Part shown: in pieces, positions 1 through 54,270 of the stretch
Layout of the letters: every line of letters starts with the position of its first letter
Position numbering within the stretch: the first letter of the stretch is position 1
Source of the DNA: an uncultured cyanobacterium
GTDB lineage: Bacteria; Cyanobacteriota; Cyanobacteriia; PCC-6307; Cyanobiaceae
Reading direction: 5' to 3'
DNA: 58,254 bases
Assembly: GCA_903858015.1 (NCBI GenBank)
Contig: CAIOGZ010000006.1
Location: 1 to 58,254, forward strand
Program-made: the position numbers and the translations under genes
Notes under the pieces: model-generated
The model's database searches: none
What the model saw: the letters and a program-made list of their open reading frames with translations, nothing else
Told to the model about the DNA's origin: nothing

Positions 1-122
1 CAAGCAGAGGCACCGCCGGCGCAGCCAAGGCGGAACCACTCCGGAAACGACGCCCCAGACCGGGTCGGGGGTGGCTCACTTTTCGGTGTCGGAAGTGGCG
101 CAGTTTTGGATGTCGGTTGACA
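1..122. mobile_element. Terminal segment of an IS21-like element (runs off the left edge)
   Basis: Read on the minus strand from 122, the end begins TGTCAACCGACATCC and carries two diverged boxes, AAAACTGCGCCACT (93-106) and AAAAGTGAGCCAC (71-83). Multiple short subterminal repeats of this AAA(A)CTGnnCCAC kind and TG...CA ends are typical of IS21-family elements. The same layout starts at 58115 in opposite orientation, and 39 bp of it recurs at 54046-54084. No transposase domain is visible in the 70 bases left in the window, so the family call rests on the ends alone. Confidence 0.6.
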
Positions 123-31740: not shown

Positions 31741-32006
31741 CGGGCCATCATCCACCGGAGCTGGCGCCGCTGCCAGCGGCAGGAAAGACGGTCGCGCCCA
31801 GGACCCCGCGGCAACGTTTGCTGTTGTGCTCCAGATTGCTGGCTCGAACGGCACCGAGCTGGCGCGGTGGCGCTGCTGTTGACCCCAGGGCAGCACGGAC
31901 AAGCTCTGGAACCGCCCAGCTGGCTGCGCAAGTTCGATACGAACAATCCCTCGGCTTCCTCGCCAACAGGGGCGCGGGGGATCATGGCGACAGCAACGCT
32001 CCATCG

Positions 32007-32951
32007 ATGCCAGCCAATCAAGCCTATCGGAAGCTCGTGCAAGCTAAAATCCGCGCCCAGATCGAAGTCACCACCCAATCAAGACCGATATTTTTTGCCG
32101 GCGCCGGGCTCTCAAGGCGCTACCTCAATACTCCGGGATGGTACGCCCTTCTGGTGGAGGTCTTGACGCTAATCGGTGATAAGAAAGGGTTGGACTTCTA
32201 CCTGCAGAAAACTGATAAGAGCGCCCTGGATGATGATTTGATCGAAGTGGCCGACATCATCGCCGAACTGGCGCACGAATGGGCCTGGAGCGAGGCGGGT
32301 AGGCAATACTTTGAACAGCACCTCTACCAATCCCAGGTTTCCTACAAGGTTTTCTTTAAGCGGATGGTGGCAAGGATCATCGGAGAGCACAGAACCATCA
32401 GTGCGGATTACGCAGACGAGCTCGCCGCGCTCAAGGCGATGGATGCCAAGGAGATCGTAACCACGAACTACGACAACTTTCTATCCGAATTTCTTGGCTA
32501 CTGCAAACACAACGGCCGTAGAGTCAATAAGTCGAACGGAGAGGGTGTGGTGCTCCACGCCCACGGCTCGATCGATGATCCCGATGGCATCATCATCCTG
32601 CCCTCCGACTACAAGGACTTCTCGATCACACACCGCTATTCATTTGCCAAGCTTCTGGTTTATTTCATTGAGGATCCCTGTGTCTTCATTGGCTACAGCC
32701 TGTCCGATCCCCACATCAAACAACTGATTGTTGATGCGGCCGAAGCAACCACCAAAACCTACCTGCCGAATGTGTTTCTCGTCTCCTGGTCGGAGCAAGA
32801 TGGTGCTTGCGAAAGCGTGTCAGAACCCTATTTGGTCGAACACCAGGGTCGGTACGCCAAGATCAACTTGATCAACACTCCCGATTTTGGCTGGATCTAC
32901 CAATCGTTTCCCCAGAAGGGCGATGCCACCAGCGTGGCCACGGCAAGTTGA
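32007..32951 (+). CDS. SIR2-family NAD-binding protein (SIR2_2-like)
   Basis: 314 residues from ATG 32007 ([15 protein letters not shown]). Sirtuin-fold motifs: [20 protein letters not shown] (NAD loop), [15 protein letters not shown] (Asn and Asp), [12 protein letters not shown] with the catalytic-type His, and [16 protein letters not shown]. Such SIR2 domains in bacterial effectors hydrolyse NAD, often as antiviral abortive-infection proteins. Here the domain stands almost alone with a short C-terminus. It is less GC-rich than proA and lies against the broken end of the porin pseudogene, as if inserted there. Confidence 0.8.
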
Positions 32952-32969
32952 TGGCTGCCTCTCTCCCAG

Positions 32970-33650
32970 CGGAGTGGTTTGGCCGAGGGGCCGGCTGAGG
33001 TCGATCAAGGCTGCTGTGATCGTGATGTTTTCGGTAACTTGTACCTCATACCACCATTCCCAAATCAGGCCGCCATCATCAGCCGACTGCGATCCTGTCA
33101 GGGCGGTGGCAAACGCGGGCTGGCCCACCGCCAAGCTTGGCTGCTGGGCTGCAGATAGCCACCTAGGCCAAAGGCATTGGTGCGGGCATGGCCATGGTGA
33201 TCAATCGCCCGTTCGTTTCCATAGGCCAGTTGCAGCCTACCTGTAGCGCCTGAGCCTGCGGTACCGATACCCCCTTGACTCGAATCAGCGCAATCTCCAT
33301 TGGCTGCAACGTAATTTGCACTGATGCTGAGTGCGTTCTGTTTCCACCAGATGCCAGCGCCTGGACCAAGATTTTTGCTGTAAGCGGCGGGGGCTTCGTT
33401 GACGGTTAAAACGTTCAGGATTGTGTCCGATGGATAGGCACTGGGCCAGAGGGCCAGCATATCTTCCTGGCCGACGCGCGGGCCCACCGTGGCCATAAAG
33501 CCTGGGCCGATCGGGAATTGAGAGAAGAGCTTGTCGATCCCTAGCACATTGCCGCAATCAGCATCGCCGCATTCCTCCTGGAAGGCGATCTCCAGTTGTG
33601 AAAGCCCCAGGGCCACCAACCAGGCGTTGAAGGGAGCGATCGAGGCAGGC
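32970..33650 (-). pseudogene. Iron-uptake porin (SLH/OprB type) fragments, frameshifted
   Basis: Minus-strand frames give the porin barrel in pieces. IGPGFMATVGPRVGQEDMLA, LWPSAYPSD and SISANYVAANGDCADSSQGG are in one frame (33098-33600). After a frame change comes the C-terminal part: PAFATALTGSQSADDGGLIW and ENITITAALIDLSRPLGQ (about 33000-33120). These match the cyanobacterial SomA-like SLH-domain porins. The final strand is missing near 32960, close to the SIR2 stop. The stretch between the SLH domain and the barrel is replaced by a 44-bp metY copy (33603-33646). Confidence 0.8.
33603..33646 (-). repeat. 44-bp inverted copy of a metY segment
   Basis: The minus strand here is identical over 44 bases to 35827-35870 inside metY, encoding SIAPFNAWLVALG in both. 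The match starts at the string GCCTCGATCG, which the porin sequence also carries at its NACLDR codons. This suggests a junction made at microhomology or by template switching. Confidence 0.9.
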
Positions 33651-34223
33651 GTTGAGCAGGGCCGCCGCCCCATAGCGGCCCATCGCCTGGCCGCCCCTGA
33701 AGCTGCCGCTGGGGTAGCCGGCCACGCAGCCGTAGCGGTCGACCAAAGTGGAGAGGGTCTGGTACGCCCAGTCGGTGGGCCTGAGGTCGGTGAACTGGGA
33801 CATGCTGGTGACTTGCTCCTGTCCGCTGTAAGCGTTCACAGCGGCAAGGTTGAGAGGGGTAAGCGGGAGGGTTGGTGGCGATTTGCTGGCCTGCCCTCGC
33901 GGTGGCGGGGCTGCCAACCACGACCCTTGAGCCGGCTTGGCTCCACCGCCGCAATCCTGCCATTGTTCCAGCAGTTCGGTCCATTCAAGGCGCATCTGAT
34001 CAAGCTCCTTGATGCGTTGCTCGATGCCCGCCAGCTTCGATTGAATTGAGGTTTTCAATGCAGAGCAATTGCAGATGCCGGAACGCCTCACGTCAACAAT
34101 GCTGCGCAGCTCACAAAGGGGAACATCCAGTGCCCTGAGGGAGCGAATCAATGACAATTCAGTGTAGATGTTGTGGTCAAACAAGCGATAGCCGCCCTGG
34201 CTTCGGCCGCTGGGACTGATCAA
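33647..34223 (-). pseudogene. Truncated MerR regulator fused in frame to a porin SLH domain
   Basis: The frame opens at a TTG with LISPSGRSQGGYRLFDHNIY, the second half of a MerR winged helix. A stop four codons upstream shows that the helix-turn-helix start is lost. The MerR dimerisation coiled coil follows (ICNCSALKTSIQSKLAGIEQ, then RIKELDQMRLEW). After a Pro-rich joint the same frame runs into a porin SLH domain: VTSMSQFTDLRPTDWAYQTL, DRYGCVAGYPSGSFRGGQAM, then AALLNACLDR. It looks like a deletion fusion of a regulator to the porin's periplasmic anchor domain. Confidence 0.8.
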
Positions 34224-34983
34224 TCCTTGATCGCACTAAAAACGAATCGTTTTCACCGGCAGGCCCGATCACTGGGCAACCTGGCCAATCCCCAGCGCCG
34301 GGGCGCCGATGCTGTTGTCAGTGGATACCGGTGCGATGGCTGCTACGGGTGGTATGGACGCCATGACGGTTGCCTGCGGCTAACCGCAGCACGATTTCAG
34401 CCCAGTGGACAATCGTGTCAGCGTCTTTGATTGATGGCAAGCCTGGCTGGTTCTGCCATTCCATCAGCGGCCCTTCGCCTTTGCCAGGGAATCAGGATCA
34501 CTCCGAAGGGGTCTGTTGCAGCGAGATTGCTCAGTATCCCCATCCGGTCCTGCTCCTCCAAGGCGCCGTCGCTGTCCCATTGGAGGCAGGTGATCGCGAC
34601 CGGATGGTTGGGCTCTCTGGGGTGCTTGGAGGCTGGGCGGCCTCGATCAGGAAACGCGGGGGCCATGGCTACGCTATGCGAGGTTTGGTTTCAGCATGGA
34701 TTGATAGGCCGGCAGCATGGGTTGTTTCAGCCACAGCCCCATGGCGTTTCGACAGCATCGCCATCATCCTCTGCCTTTGCACCTGCATCTGCCTTTGAGC
34801 CTGCATCTGCATCTGAATCTGCATCGTGATCTAAATCGTGATCTATTTCGACATCTAAATTGACATTTGTTCGATACCGATCATTCCAGACGTGCCCGGA
34901 TGCACGTGCCCCTGTTGCCATCGCCACAGGGAGGGCCTTCGCCAGGGCCATAGCGTTGGTTTGGCCCTAGCTTCTGCTCTGCT
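34224..34983. other. 760-base stretch without a convincing gene
   Basis: Holds decayed-looking sequence upstream of metY. From about 34770 to 34860 it contains a degenerate hexamer tract (CATCTG/GATCTA-type units, CCTGCATCTGCATCTGAATC) that in one minus-strand frame would encode Asp/Ala-rich repeats (HDLDHDADSDADAGSKADAG). A minus-strand frame at 34418-34666 looks partly coding but is not recognised. The metY promoter should lie in the last 100 bases. Confidence 0.5.
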
Positions 34984-36297
34984 GTGACATCAACCTGGTC
35001 GTTTGAGACGAAGCAGATCCATGCCGGGCAGGTTGCTGATCCGAGCACCAATGCCCGGGCTCTGCCGCTTTACCAGACGACCTCGTTTACCTTTAACGAC
35101 ACCACCCATGCGGCCAATCTGTTTGGCCTCAAGGAATTTGGAAATATCTATACCCGCATCATGAATCCCACCCAGGCGGCGGTGGAGGAGCGGATTGCGG
35201 CCCTGGAGGGCGGGGTTGGTGCGCTGCTGCTGGCCAGCGGCCAGGCCGCCGAAACGATCGCGATTCTCAATCTCGCGGAAGCCGGCGATCACATCGTTTC
35301 CAGTCCCTCCCTCTACGGCGGCACCTACAACCTGTTCCATTACACGCTGCCCAAACTGGGGATTGAGGTGTCCTTTGTGGCCAATCCCGACGACCCCCAG
35401 TCCTGGCGAGATGCCGTGCGGCCGAATACGAAAGCCTTCTTCGGTGAATCGATCGCCAATCCCAAAAACGACATTCTCGATATTGAAGCGGTGGCCGCCG
35501 TCGCCCATGGGGTGGGCGTTCCCCTGATTGTGGACAACACGGTTGCCACCCCCTATCTGATCCGGCCGATCGAATGGGGCGCCGACATCGTGGTCCACTC
35601 CGTCACCAAGTACATCGGCGGCCATGGCACCGCCATCGGTGGTGTGATCGTCGACAGCGGCCGCTTCGACTACGCCGCCCAGCCGCAGCGATTCCCCAGT
35701 TTCAACCAGCCCGACCCCAGCTATCACGGTCTGGTCTATGCCCGCGATCTGGGCGTCAACGGAGGCCTCGGCGCCAACCTCGCCTTCATCCTCAAGGCCA
35801 GGGTGCAGCTGCTGCGTGATCTCGGCGCCTCGATCGCTCCCTTCAACGCCTGGTTGGTGGCCCTGGGGCTGGAGACGCTGTCGTTGCGGATTGAGCGCCA
35901 CACCGCCAATGCCCAGGCCGTTGCCCGTTGGCTGCAGGCTAGGCCCGAGGTGCTTTCGGTGAACTATGCGGGTCTAGAGAGCAGCCCCTGGTACCAGCGG
36001 GGCCGCAAGTACGCGCCGCTGGGAAGCTCCGGCATCCTGGCCTTCGAGATCCAGGGCGGTGTGGAGGCCGGCAAGGCGTTTGTGGAGGCGCTCAAACTGC
36101 ACAGCCATGTGGCCAACATCGGTGATGTACGCAGCCTGGTGATCCATCCGGCCTCCACCACCCATTCCCAGCTCTCAGCCGAAGAGCGGCTAGCTGCCGG
36201 CGTCAGCCCGGGGCTGGTGCGTCTATCGGTGGGTCTGGAGAATCTGCAGGACATCCTCACCGACCTGGACCTGGGCTTCGCGGCGCTGGTGCGCTGA
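34984..36297 (+). CDS. metY: O-acetylhomoserine sulfhydrylase (direct sulfhydrylation)
   Basis: 437 residues from GTG 34984. Cys/Met-metabolism PLP enzyme: SWSFETKQIHAGQ-type opening, LASGQAAETIAILNL, FGESIANPKNDILDIEAVA, and the PLP lysine at about 209 in VVHSVTKYIGGHG. The C-terminal RSLVIHPASTTHSQLSAEE is typical of the family. It makes homocysteine from O-acetylhomoserine and sulfide. MetX follows after 35 bases, so the pair forms the methionine branch operon. A 44-bp piece of this gene is copied, inverted, at 33603-33646. Confidence 0.95.
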   Translation: MTSTWSFETKQIHAGQVADPSTNARALPLYQTTSFTFNDTTHAANLFGLKEFGNIYTRIMNPTQAAVEERIAALEGGVGALLLASGQAAETIAILNLAEAGDHIVSSPSLYGGTYNLFHYTLPKLGIEVSFVANPDDPQSWRDAVRPNTKAFFGESIANPKNDILDIEAVAAVAHGVGVPLIVDNTVATPYLIRPIEWGADIVVHSVTKYIGGHGTAIGGVIVDSGRFDYAAQPQRFPSFNQPDPSYHGLVYARDLGVNGGLGANLAFILKARVQLLRDLGASIAPFNAWLVALGLETLSLRIERHTANAQAVARWLQARPEVLSVNYAGLESSPWYQRGRKYAPLGSSGILAFEIQGGVEAGKAFVEALKLHSHVANIGDVRSLVIHPASTTHSQLSAEERLAAGVSPGLVRLSVGLENLQDILTDLDLGFAALVR

Positions 36298-44457: not shown

Positions 44458-44706
44458 ATGAACCCCTTGCTGCGGCTGCTCGGAGCGGCCGCCTCCCACG
44501 GCCTGCTCACCGGCCAGCTCGTCTACTCGGTCGCCTTCGTCGGCGCCTGTGAGCTGCCCAACTGGCTCCTGGCCCCGCGCCAGATCAATGCCTGCCTGGA
44601 GAGGTGGATGACGGTCAGAGCCCTGTTCTTCCCCTCCGGCATGCAGCTGGCCGCCGCCAGCGCTCAGCCGGCCCTGACGCCCGGTCGGCGGGGGGTGTTC
44701 CGATGA
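44458..44706 (+). CDS. Small hydrophobic protein of the duplicated C39 module, copy 1
   Basis: 82 residues, MNPLLRLLGAAASHGLLTGQ, then LVYSVAFVGACELPNWLLAP and CLERWMTVRALFFPSGMQLA. One or two membrane-like stretches, one of them rich in Cys/Trp. No family recognised. The stop overlaps the start of the peptidase gene (ATGA at 44703-44706), so the two are coupled. A near-identical but damaged copy is at 46560-46803. Confidence 0.65.
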   Translation: MNPLLRLLGAAASHGLLTGQLVYSVAFVGACELPNWLLAPRQINACLERWMTVRALFFPSGMQLAAASAQPALTPGRRGVFR

Positions 44707-45516
44707 GCCGCCCCATCCCCACCCACGACTACGTGACGCACTTCGATCCGGAGCTGCCGCACCACCGGGCCTGGCCGCAGGCGGCATTGGAGCGCCTGGT
44801 GAACCATGAACCCGAGGCCCTGGTGGAGGGCGGCCCCCTCTGGCGGCTGTGGAGCACCGCGCCGGCTGAGGCCGCTGGCACGGAGGCAGAAGCCCCAACC
44901 GGGGCCAGCGGTAGCCGCCACCCCAACCCCCTGGTGGGTATGCCCCACTTCCGGCAGCGGGACTCCGCCCAGCGGAGCCAGCGGGATCGCACCTGCTTCT
45001 CTTCCAGCTGCGCCATGCTCCTGGAGGCCCTCAAGCCCGGCACGCTTCCGGGCGCCAATGGCGACGACCAGTACCTGGCGGTGATGCAGCGCTACGGCGA
45101 CACCACCGACGCGGGCGCCCAGCTGCAGGCCCTCGCTCATTACGGCATCACCGCCCGGCTGGTGCAGGACGCGGACTTCCAGTTGCTGGAGCAGCAGATC
45201 GCCCGTGGCATCCCGGTTCCCTGCGGCACCATCCACCGGGGCCCGGTGGATCGGCCCGCCGGCTCGGGGCACTGGCTGGTCGTCGTGGGCCATTCCCCCA
45301 CCCATCTGGTGGTGAACGACCCTTGGGGGGAGCCCGATCTGCTCAGCGGGGCCACCCTCAACCCCAACGGCAAGGGGCTCCGCTTCTCCCGGCAGAACGA
45401 CCGCTGCGCGGGCCTGCGGCTACGGCAAGCGTTGGATGGTGGAGCCCATCGGCGGCAGTGCCTACCGCTATGCCCCGGGCAAGGGCTGGACGGTGGTGGT
45501 GGATCGAGCGGCCTGA
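44458..45516 (+). repeat. 1.06-kb direct repeat, unit A
   Basis: Matches unit B (46560-47616) over its whole length, covering the small hydrophobic gene and the C39-like gene, with many point differences. The units are separated by a toxin-antitoxin pair and about 400 bases. Confidence 0.85.
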
Positions 45517-45602
45517 GGACGCAGCGAGCCAATGCTCGTTTTCGACTGGCTCACGTCGCTGATGTCGATGGCTGCAGCAGGAGAAAGCCGGCGTCTGGGT
45601 GA
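44703..45602 (+). CDS. C39-like cysteine peptidase, copy 1 (3' end frameshifted)
   Basis: 299 residues as read. The papain-like C39 core spans about residues 78-220: MPHFRQRDSAQRSQRDRTCF, SSSCAMLLEALKPG with the catalytic Cys, GSGHWLVVVGHSPTHLVVND with the His, and PWGEPDL with the Asp. Near 45415 the reading leaves the ancestral frame. A +1 shift restores GYGKRWMVEPIGGSAYRYAP and a stop at 45514-45516. The same shift is present in copy 2. C39-like domains process bacteriocin-type peptides or act in phage and toxin proteins; the target is unknown. Confidence 0.7.
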   Translation: MSRPIPTHDYVTHFDPELPHHRAWPQAALERLVNHEPEALVEGGPLWRLWSTAPAEAAGTEAEAPTGASGSRHPNPLVGMPHFRQRDSAQRSQRDRTCFSSSCAMLLEALKPGTLPGANGDDQYLAVMQRYGDTTDAGAQLQALAHYGITARLVQDADFQLLEQQIARGIPVPCGTIHRGPVDRPAGSGHWLVVVGHSPTHLVVNDPWGEPDLLSGATLNPNGKGLRFSRQNDRCAGLRLRQALDGGAHRRQCLPLCPGQGLDGGGGSSGLRTQRANARFRLAHVADVDGCSRRKPASG

Positions 45603-45910
45603 GAGCAGAACTGCTCAATCGTCTCTGCCTGCTGGAGCAACAGGGACGCCGTCGTGGCGTTGCTGGCGTTGCCGATGGCCAGGTAGACAACCTTGGGCGG
45701 AAATCCCCAGGCCACGCTGAGATCGAGGAAGTCCTCGTCCTTGGTGACCAGTACGAGAACCTGCTGACTGGCCCATTTCCAGATCGCGGTGTCACTGGCA
45801 CCGCCGAGACCGATCAGGCGTACATGGGTGGAGTGCGGGAACCTCTCGATCAGCAGCGGTAGCAACCGCTCCGAGAGGTTTTCATCCAGCAGCAACTGCG
45901 GTGGACTCAC
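45551..45910 (-). CDS. DUF5615 PIN-like toxin
   Basis: 119 residues. LLLDENLSERLLPLLIERFP opens a PIN-like nuclease fold with Asp9-Glu10. VLVLVTKDEDFLDLSVAWG holds the second acidic cluster (D-E-D), and VVYLAIGNASN follows. DUF5615 proteins pair with DUF433 antitoxins in a VapBC-like system and are predicted RNases. It lies 10 bases downstream of the DUF433 gene on the same strand. Confidence 0.85.
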   Translation of the reverse strand: MSPPQLLLDENLSERLLPLLIERFPHSTHVRLIGLGGASDTAIWKWASQQVLVLVTKDEDFLDLSVAWGFPPKVVYLAIGNASNATTASLLLQQAETIEQFCSHPDAGFLLLQPSTSAT

Positions 45911-45920
45911 GCTCGACGGC

Positions 45921-46154
45921 TCAAACCGCAGCTGGGCTGGTGATCAGGCGTTTTTCGCGCTCCGCCGCAAAGGCCAGACATGCCAGCACGTCCTCATGGG
46001 TGAGCTGGGGAAAGTCCTCCAGAAGTTCTGCTTCCGTGCTGCCGGCAGCCAGGGTGCCGAGCACATCGCCCACAGTCAGGCGCGTGCCCCTGACGCAAGG
46101 CTTCCCAAAGCGCACCGCTGGGTCAATGGTGATCCGCTCAAGCATGTCCATCAC
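45921..46154 (-). CDS. DUF433 antitoxin
   Basis: 77 residues. ITIDPAVRFGKPCVRGTRLT, then VGDVLGTLAAGSTEAELLED and FPQLTHEDVLACLAFAAERE, are the complete DUF433 signature, a helix-turn-helix-like domain. It is partner and probable autoregulator of the DUF5615 gene immediately downstream. The pair sits between the two C39 modules, facing the other way. Confidence 0.9.
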   Translation of the reverse strand: MMDMLERITIDPAVRFGKPCVRGTRLTVGDVLGTLAAGSTEAELLEDFPQLTHEDVLACLAFAAEREKRLITSPAAV

Positions 46155-46559
46155 TGCAGGCTAAGGGGATTTTCTGGGGGACGTCCCTTAGGGGGCCAGC
46201 CCCTGTGGGGCTCTCGGCGCCGAGTCCATGGCCATGCTTTCTGCTGCTGCCTCGCCGTTCTGCCGGCCCATCGCACCGGAAGGTGCGTTCTGCAAACCAG
46301 AGCAGGATCCTGCAGCTGCGGCGAGGGCTGCCGCTGCGCCGCACCTGGATCGAGCAGCCCTATGGCGAGGAGGAAATCACCCTGCTGGAAGAGGAGGTGA
46401 TCCCGGCGATCCAGCTCGGATCGACGGAGCGTTCGCTGCACCCAGCGGCGGACGATCACGCCGCCCTGCGCCAGCAGCTGGTGGGGGCGGGCTGAGGCCC
46501 CCTCGGGGTTCTTGCCAGGCCCGTGGCAAAAAGCAGAGGACCCGCCGCCCTCTGGCTCC
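46155..46559. other. 400-base spacer with palindromic element and unrecognised frame
   Basis: AGGGGGCCAGCCCCT (46190-46204) is a G/C-rich palindrome-like sequence sharing AGGGGCTGGCCC (minus strand) with the large palindrome in the SDR gene at 57.4 kb. A plus-strand frame ending at 46495 contains TWIEQPYGEEEITLLEEEVI, which looks coding but is not recognised and has no credible start. Confidence 0.45.
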
Positions 46560-46803
46560 ATGAACCCCCTGCTTGCTGGGAGCGGCCGCCTCCCATGGCC
46601 AGCTCACCGGCCAGCTCGTCTTCTCGGTCGCGTTTGTTGGAGCCTGTGAGCTGCCCAACTGGCTCCTGGCCCCGCGCCAGGTGAATGCCTGCCTGGAGAG
46701 GTGGATGACGGTGAGCGCCCTGTTCTTCCCCTCCGGCATGCAGCTGGCCGCTGCCAGCGCTCAGCCGGCCCTGACGCCCGGACGGCGGGGGGTGTTCCGA
46801 TGA
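46560..46803 (+). pseudogene. Small hydrophobic protein of the C39 module, copy 2 (5' frameshift)
   Basis: The first codons ATGAACCCCCTGCTTGCTGG have lost five bases relative to copy 1, which breaks the frame after the start. Translation could only resume from a TTG at 46573 (LGAAASHGQLTGQLVFSVAF). The rest is nearly the same as copy 1 and overlaps the following gene by ATGA. Confidence 0.65.
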
Positions 46804-47616
46804 GCCGCCCCATCCCAACCCATGACTACGTCGCGCATTTCGATCCGCGGTTGGAGTGGCACCGGGCCTGGCTGCAGGCGGCGCTGGAGTGGCTGGTGGA
46901 CCATGAACCCGAAGCGCTGCTGGAGGGCGGGCCGCTCTGGCGGCTGTGGAGCACCGCGCCGGTGGAGGCTGCTGGAGGGGCGGCGGAGGCCCCCACCGGT
47001 GCCAGTGATCGCCCCGACCCCAACCCCCTGGTGCGTGTGCCCCACTTCCAGCAGCGGGACTCCGCCCAGCTGAGCCAGCGGGATCGCACTTGCTTCTCCT
47101 CCAGCTGCGCCATGCTCCTGGAAGCCCTCAAGCCCGGCTCGCTCCTGGGCGCCAACGGCGACGACGCCTACCTGCAGGTGGTGCAGAGCTACGACGACAC
47201 CACCGACGCGGGCGCCCAGCTCCAGGCCCTCGCACATTTCGGCGTCACCGCCCGGCTGGTGCAGGACGCGGACTTCCAGCTGCTGGAACAGCAGATCGCA
47301 GGCGGCATCCCGGTGCCCTGCGGCACCATCCACCGGGACCCTGACCATCGACCCACCGGCTCGGGTCACTGGCTGATCGTCATCAGTCACACCCCCACCC
47401 ACCTGGTGGTGAATGACCCGTAGGGAGAGCCGGATCTGCTCAGCGGCGACACGCTTAATGCCAAAGGCATGCGGCTCCACTTCTCCCGCCAGAACCACCG
47501 CTGCGCGGGCCGGCGGCTACGGCAAGCGCTGGATGGTAGAGCCCATCGGTGGCGGGGCCTACCGCTACGCCCCCAGCAAGGCGTGGGTGGTGGTGGTGGT
47601 GGATGGGGTGGGGTGA
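46800..47616 (+). pseudogene. C39-like cysteine peptidase, copy 2 (nonsense and frameshift)
   Basis: Keeps the Cys block (SSSCAMLLEALKPG) and the His block (GSGHWLIVISHTPTHLVVND), but the Trp codon of the DPWGE motif is TAG at 47421-47423. That cuts the protein at 207 residues, just before the Asp region's end. Downstream, the same +1 frameshift as in copy 1 separates the final GYGKRWMVEPIGGGAYRYAP, with a stop at 47614-47616. It is the decayed paralogue of copy 1. Confidence 0.75.
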
Positions 47617-53529: not shown

Positions 53530-54270
53530 GTGAAAGGGCACCTGAACGGTGTGGCCTCAACCACATCGGAGGCTCGGTGCGAAGCGCTAACACCGATGGG
53601 AGCCGCTCCCTTTGACGTTGTGACCCTTGCCTCTGATCCCAGCCGTAGCCTTGATGATTGGGGCGGGGGTGATCCGTTGACGGTGCTGTTCAAAGGCGAA
53701 CAACCAAGGTCTGCTGCCGTGAGCGGGGAGGGGTGGAATCTGGCCGAACTGGTGGACTCCCTGCGGGGCTGCCGCGAGCATTCACCGCTCAACAACCGCA
53801 GCACCATCGAACCGGCGGCGCTGCCCTCGCCGAAGCTGTTCACCAAGGTACTGGAATCTCTGAAGGCTGCGCTCTATCCCCGCCGACTCGGTCCCTCGGG
53901 TTCCGAACGGGGAGCCGTGGCCCTGCGGGAGGCCAGCATCGATGACTTCGTGGGCCTCACCCTCCACGATTCCCTGCTGGCGCTCCGGGATCAGATCCGC
54001 ATCGAACTGGCGACCCGTCCCAGGGATGGCGAAAGCCGCGGCGTCTGTCAACCGACATCCAAAACTGCGCCACTTCCGACACCGGCGTGGACATCCACCC
54101 CGGAGCCGTGATCGCTAAGCGTGTCCGCTTTTATCAGGCTGTGACGCTTGGTGCGAAGTCGTTTCCGCAGGATGAGAATGGCTATCTGGTCAAAGGCAAA
54201 CCACGCCATCCGATCGTGCAGGATGAGGTGGTGATCTATACGGGTGCTGATGGAGTTGGGGAGGGAGCTT
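53530..54270 (+). pseudogene. Serine O-acetyltransferase pseudogene with IS scar
   Basis: The N-terminal helical domain is recognisable (LAELVDSLRGCREH, VLESLKAALYPRRLGPSG, DDFVGLTLHDSLLALRDQIR). The sequence then runs into a 39-bp IS21-like end at 54046-54084. It resumes in another frame with the hexapeptide-repeat domain: VDIHPGAVI, then RVRFYQAVTLGAKSFPQDEN, YLVKGKPRHPIVQDEVVIY. The loop with the active-site His between PGAVI and RVRFYQ is deleted, and the C-terminus is lost after VVIYTGA. It would have made O-acetylserine for cysteine. Confidence 0.85.
54046..54084 (+). mobile_element. Solitary 39-bp IS21-like end
   Basis: Identical over 39 bases to the reverse complement of 84-122. It begins TGTCAACCGACATCC and stops after the first internal repeat, at CGACACCG. 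No element follows; serine acetyltransferase sequence resumes at once. It is a remnant left by imprecise excision or recombination. Confidence 0.85.

What the first reader, a model, noticed from the sequence alone, without database searches (positions are those of the whole stretch)
33603..34223. Chimeric locus: truncated MerR fused to a porin SLH domain, with a 44-bp metY patch at the break
One frame runs from the second half of a MerR DNA-binding domain into the SLH domain of an iron-uptake porin. Directly after the SLH fragment, 44 bases are an exact inverted copy of metY (35827-35870), after which porin barrel sequence resumes. The junction shares GCCTCGATCG between porin and metY. A templated patch copied from a gene 2.2 kb away at microhomology points to template switching or end-joining repair. 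The fusion frame is open for 221 codons.
Basis: seen in the sequence. Interest (0 to 1): 0.6.

Follow-up and report, generated by a model that had tools for sequence, protein, structure and literature searches.

The report
Decayed porin gene with copied patch
A dead outer-membrane porin gene in a cyanobacterium carries a 44-base stretch copied backwards from a nearby gene exactly where a piece of the porin was lost, which is a rare but known kind of DNA-copying accident and not a new fusion gene.

Summary
The sequence observation holds. Bases 33603-33646 are an exact reverse complement of metY 35827-35870, the only two copies found in the genome at up to 3 mismatches. It is a strong outlier: the longest comparable local inverted repeat in 728 kb of control stretches is 22 nt.

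The "chimeric fusion" reading does not hold. Close relatives carry an intact merR directly upstream of an SLH iron-uptake porin on the same strand, so the two were neighbours already. The window copy is a decayed version of that pair: merR is full length with two in-frame stops, the stretch between the genes is mostly deleted, and the porin has three further internal deletions. The 221-codon frame is a by-product; the porin barrel is out of frame with it.

The patch bridges one deletion: about 396-399 nt of porin replaced by about 22-25 nt of metY, with 11-nt microhomology at one end and partial microhomology at the other. Best explanation: one local inter-strand template switch. No Ku gene was found. 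An amplification artefact is unlikely but only raw reads can exclude it. A clean fossil of a known mutation class, of modest interest.

The parts
33948..34364 (-). merR relic, ATG to the last codons aligned with the intact G034 gene; two in-frame stops (34269-34271 and 34236-34238)
   Evidence: (71% aa identity to G034 merR, 1 TGA and 1 TAG inside)
33558..34223 (-).
33856..33866 (-). deletion scar between merR and porin: 11 nt here against 132 nt in G034 (net ~121 nt, including the porin signal-peptide region)
33636..33855 (-). porin SLH segment, 84% nt identity to G034; its last 11 nt (33636-33646) are shared with metY
33603..33646 (-). 44-nt patch identical to metY sense strand; replaces ~396-399 nt of porin (net -374 nt, frameshifting)
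35827..35870 (+). donor segment inside intact metY
34984..36297 (+). metY, O-acetylhomoserine sulfhydrylase, intact 437 aa
33210..33602 (-). porin barrel segment after the patch
33209..33209 (-). deletion scar, net ~78 nt against G034
33143..33208 (-). porin barrel segment
33134..33142 (-). deletion scar, net ~145 nt against G034
32962..33133 (-). porin C-terminal segment; the last residues are not recognisable where the SIR2-like gene ends
31818..32951 (+). SIR2_2-domain gene abutting the 3' end of the porin relic (neighbour, not part of the patch)

Best explanation
The locus is a decaying merR-porin gene pair. Shown: in-frame stops and at least four deletions have wrecked it, and one deletion is bridged by metY sequence. 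Inferred mechanism: while porin DNA was being copied, the growing strand came off its template at GCCTCGATCGC and paired with the same 11 bases on the opposite strand of nearby metY. It copied about 22-33 bases there, then returned to the porin template about 400 bases further on, at a second short match around CCCTGGGG. One event thus made both the deletion and the patch. The 221-codon frame is an accident, probably without a working product.
For: Intact collinear merR-porin in relatives. Deletion breakpoints coincide with the patch ends: in 9 of 13 homologs examined the spacing could be read, and all 9 have 414 nt where this copy has 40 (for the other 4 the right side was not read). The 11-nt left microhomology is exact in 7 of 13 homologs, including two other porins of the same genome (C53, C64). 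The last 11 nt of the patch match 7-10 of 11 positions in the 8 homologs scored. The donor is 2.2 kb away and inverted; a donor placed evenly over the genome would fall within that distance about 0.12% of the time. The patch is identical to the genome's own metY, against 2 mismatches in G014. Relaxed constraint: 55 nonsynonymous and 37 synonymous changes on this lineage against 33 and 50 on G034's, Fisher p = 0.010 (sums, tested). No Ku found.
Against: The right-hand microhomology is not fully shown: none of the 8 scored homologs has all 11 bases. The left one is inexact in 6 of 13 homologs, among them the nearest merR-linked ortholog, G034 (8 of 11). The pre-event sequence is unknown. Per-segment rate counts are small, and in the merR part the relic is not farther from the outgroup than G034 is (52 against 57 aa differences). 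No second isolate or raw reads were available. Strand and fork direction are unknown.
Confidence: 0.62

Rival explanations
1. [quoted passage not shown]
For: Short patch, same-genome donor, microhomology. SPDIR is named as a recombination process with relaxed identity needs in PMC7192050 (one passage seen); its details are recalled, since a recalled DOI for the primary paper is not held.
Against: A free fragment could come from anywhere; a donor within 2.2 kb is expected about 0.12% of the time if donors are spread evenly.
Confidence: 0.22
2. Laboratory artefact: a chimera made during whole-genome amplification, or an assembly error. Amplification chimeras are mostly local, inverted and primed by short matching stretches.
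For: The geometry matches MDA chimeras: 406 of 475 inverted, 337 of those under 10 kb apart, priming at matches of up to 21 nt (PMC1855051, abstract and passages). Draft assembly of 100 contigs; how it was made is not known to me.
Against: No other local inverted exact repeat of 24 nt or more in 328 kb of the same assembly. The patch is flanked by porin on both sides and needs two switches. Completeness is 99.93%, unusual for an amplified single cell (recalled). An overlap misjoin should bring metY flanks along, which is not seen.
Confidence: 0.1
3. End joining after a double-strand break captured a 44-nt metY fragment.
For: Deletion plus filler is typical of end joining (recalled).
Against: No Ku in the held assembly, while the same search found Ku in 1 of 14 control genomes, Bacillus subtilis. 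An 11-nt match is longer than end joining needs (recalled). Ku-independent end joining was not tested.
Confidence: 0.04
4. The fusion frame or the patch is functional, for example a MerR-SLH protein or a regulatory match to metY.
For: Frame open for 221 codons.
Against: The DNA-binding half is interrupted by two stops; barrel out of frame; signal-peptide region lost; excess of nonsynonymous change; the 44-mer is absent from 40 of 41 other genus genomes at up to 3 mismatches, and in the remaining one lies only in metY.
Confidence: 0.02

Closest known systems
Local inter-strand template switching (quasipalindrome-type, FoSTeS/MMBIR-type templated insertions)
   Same: Short insertion copied from a nearby inverted segment, microhomology at the switch, return to the original template
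   Different: Arms are 2.2 kb apart rather than close together as in quasipalindromes (recalled); a ~400-nt deletion accompanies the patch; seen only as a fossil in a bacterial pseudogene
[quoted passage not shown]
   Same: Short same-genome patch joined at short matches
   Different: Donor is local and inverted; large deletion spanned; no evidence for free single-stranded DNA
MDA amplification chimeras
   Same: Local, inverted, primed by short matches
   Different: Appears once, as a two-sided patch, with none elsewhere in the sampled tenth of the assembly
Som-type iron-uptake porin (NF033921, por_somb)
   Same: G034 ortholog matches above cut-off (256.7 against 100 bits)
   Different: The window copy is a pseudogene with deletions and a foreign patch; the relic itself was not scanned with this model

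Membership tests
Local inter-strand template switch | Insert is a copy of the opposite strand of a nearby site | tested here: met
   Exact inverted copy, 2180 nt between arms, only two copies in genome
Local inter-strand template switch | Microhomology at the outgoing switch | tested here: met
   GCCTCGATCGC, 11 nt, exact in 7 of 13 homologs, two of them in the same genome
Local inter-strand template switch | Microhomology at the return switch | tested here: inconclusive
   8 scored homologs match 7-10 of the last 11 nt, none all 11
Local inter-strand template switch | Arises during replication or repair synthesis | not testable with these tools
   Fossil only
SPDIR | Short patch from the same genome or taken-up DNA (size limit recalled) | tested here: met
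   44 nt, own metY
SPDIR | Donor is free single-stranded DNA, position-independent | not testable with these tools
   Donor proximity (0.12% expectation) argues mildly against
Ku-dependent end joining | Ku gene present | tested here: not met
   PF02735: no match in this assembly; the control search found it in B. subtilis, 1 of 14 control genomes
MDA chimera artefact | Local inverted joins recur across the assembly | tested here: not met
   0 inverted exact repeats of 24 nt or more within 6 kb in 328 kb of the same assembly; only part of the assembly was sampled
Pseudogene of a MerR plus Som-type porin pair | Intact collinear orthologs, in-frame stops, frameshifting deletions | tested here: met

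The most novel reading that the evidence does not exclude
A single replication-fork error with a 2.2-kb reach jumped between strands and back in a cyanobacterium in which no Ku was found, deleting ~400 nt and writing in metY sequence. If such scars recur in decaying genes of this group, local strand-jumping would be a measurable route by which bacterial pseudogenes shrink and acquire patchwork sequence.
Probability: 0.5. Interest if true: 0.42.

Novelty: new member of a known kind. Interest (0 to 1): 0.3.

Why it matters
Here donor, recipient, breakpoints and intact relatives of a templated scar in a wild bacterium are all readable at once. The case separates a genuine copying scar from an apparent gene fusion, and it gives a concrete target for a survey of how bacterial pseudogenes lose sequence. 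It does not reveal a new system or a new protein.

Tried and rejected
Dispersed repeat: rejected, two copies in the genome and, in 41 other genus genomes, one match within 3 mismatches, in G014's metY. RNA element: no Rfam match in the window at gathering thresholds or in 32900-35000 at E up to 1. Inversion by recombination across the 44-nt arms: rejected, metY is intact across its arm and merR, SLH and barrel keep the order of relatives. Ancestral porin-metY adjacency: no merR-porin match in the eight fetched metY neighbourhoods (G029, G014, G010, G030, G007, G023, G024, G025), as far as the fetched stretches reach. Naming the species: the genome-contig scan gave named relatives only (Vulcanococcus sp. 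Clear-D1, Synechococcus sp. UW140 MAGs, an uncultured cyanobacterium, two Acidobacteria); the tool says own records may be left out. Primary SPDIR paper: two recalled DOIs are not held; a full-text search for the hyphenated phrase gave none, a search for the acronym gave three papers, of which one shows a passage on it and one shows none in its main text. Literature searches for bacterial templated patches: only listings with abstract beginnings were seen; in the rows listed I saw no paper on such a scar in a cyanobacterial pseudogene, but the lists are capped and the library is partial.

Full report
What is there. The window (contig 6 of a 3.84-Mb, 100-contig genome) holds, on the minus strand between 34364 and 32962, a merR-like gene followed by an SLH/Som-type porin. 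On the plus strand next to it lies an intact metY (34984-36297). Bases 33603-33646 are an exact reverse complement of metY 35827-35870. No other copy with up to 3 mismatches was found in the genome. Of 42 genus genomes (own included), one other, G014, has a copy within 3 mismatches; it is single, has 2 mismatches, and lies inside metY.

Is it more than chance? I counted exact inverted repeats spaced 60-6000 nt in 20 stretches of the same genome (328,164 bases) and in 200,000 bases each of two single-contig relatives (G020, G023). Counts at 24 nt or more were 0, 0 and 0; the longest was 22 nt. The window has one, of 44 nt. In the window as a whole, without the distance limit, there is one other exact inverted repeat of 24 nt or more, 39 nt long and about 54 kb apart.

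MerR and porin were neighbours already. In G034, merR (143 codons) is followed on the same strand by the porin, with every porin segment of the window matched in order. G022 and G028 show the same, and G021 shows merR followed by an SLH part cut by its contig end; in G032 the contig ends about 440 nt past merR. Comparing positions, more distant merR homologs (53-60% identity) in several genomes, for example G010, G025 and G031, instead lie downstream of a porin on the same strand, so the association is old but its order varies. The G034 porin is an iron-uptake porin by NCBIfam (256.7 bits, cut-off 100). The intact G034 merR matches several metal-responsive MerR models below their cut-offs, so its ligand is not assigned. 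The G034 contig has the same number and length (18,215) as a named MAG contig, CAIOCZ010000176.1, so this comparator is probably a MAG.

The window copy is decayed. merR reads from an ATG at 34364 with a TGA at 34269-34271 and a TAG at 34236-34238, also flagged by the protein search. The merR matches of G034, G022, G028, G032 and G021 have none; five more distant ones (G030, G031, G033, G037, G029) have one stop each, which I did not examine. In the window merR's own stop is not retained, and about 121 nt between the genes, including the porin signal-peptide region, are gone. Together these make the 221-codon frame. Inside the porin, three further deletions of net ~374, ~78 and ~145 nt are seen against homologs. 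The ~374-nt one shifts the frame, so the barrel is not in the fusion frame. The 3' end is lost beside a SIR2_2-domain gene. With G022 and G028 as outgroups, changes assigned to this lineage are 37 synonymous and 55 nonsynonymous, against 50 and 33 for G034 (sums over five segments; Fisher p = 0.010). This supports relaxed constraint; the merR segment alone shows no larger amino-acid distance to the outgroup than G034's (52 against 57).

The patch junctions. I examined 13 of the 27 loci with a porin match. In the 9 that could be read at both sides, 414 nt separate the end of the CGC of the SLH segment from the Leu codon of the barrel motif L-E-I/V; here it is 40 nt. On the left the patch begins in 11 bases shared by porin and metY, GCCTCGATCGC, found exactly in 7 of 13 homologs including two other porins of this genome (C53 and C64); G034, G039, G035, G022, G028 and G026 differ at one or more positions. 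On the right the last 11 bases match homologs at 7 to 10 positions, none at all 11 (8 of 9 homologs scored; L014 did not fit the script's search pattern and dropped out). Hence about 396-399 nt were replaced by about 22-25 nt of certain metY origin, with up to 11 nt of ambiguity on each side.

Mechanism. One event that made both deletion and patch is the simplest reading, because deletion ends and patch ends coincide. The donor lies 2.2 kb off and in opposite orientation; a donor drawn evenly from the genome would lie that close about 0.12% of the time. This favours a switch to the opposite strand at or near one fork over capture of a free fragment (SPDIR). Ku-type end joining is disfavoured, as no Ku was found while the control search found it in Bacillus subtilis. 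The strand jump, the copying and the return are inferred, not shown.

Artefact check. MDA chimeras share the local, inverted, short-match signature (PMC1855051, abstract and passages), so the possibility is real. Against it stand the absence of any similar repeat in the sampled part of the assembly, the double-sided patch, and the several independent signs of decay around it. Only reads can settle it.

What is known. Templated insertions by template switching are an established kind (listings and abstract beginnings). SPDIR is named in a passage of PMC7192050; its first description is recalled, not read. This case is a well-resolved member. In the rows listed I saw no paper on such a scar in a cyanobacterial pseudogene; the lists are capped and the library is open-licence only.

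Verdict. Observation confirmed; interpretation partly supported. The title of the finding should be turned round: it is not a chimeric gene with a patch at the break, but a dead gene pair in which one of several deletions was bridged by copying a piece of the neighbour.

Noticed in passing
window 31818-32951: SIR2_2-domain gene (best PADLOC model PDC-S25, matched over positions 13-302 of 517) abutting the porin relic; possibly a shortened defence gene whose arrival clipped the porin's 3' end.
   Followed up: partly
window 84-122 and 54046-54084: 39-nt exact inverted repeat about 54 kb apart, perhaps a mobile-element remnant.
   Followed up: no
window 44505-47340: Many exact direct matches at a constant spacing of 2097 nt: probably a diverged tandem gene duplication.
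   Followed up: no
window 34770-34823: Three 18-nt imperfect tandem units between merR and metY.
   Followed up: no
L052 (G024:C133) 281-1022: metY and metX match the window only in broken pieces with missing stretches, suggesting a decaying met cluster in that species; metY is patchy in the genus (long matches in 9 of 42 genomes, own included).
   Followed up: no
window, whole: CGATCG is enriched (54 against 19.7 expected from base composition), recalling the cyanobacterial HIP1 palindrome (recalled); the left microhomology contains it.
   Followed up: partly
G030:C50, G031:C230, G033:C82, G037:C114, G029:C44: More distant merR homologs each reported with one stop inside the match; could be further decayed merR genes or read-through of the natural stop.
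   Followed up: no
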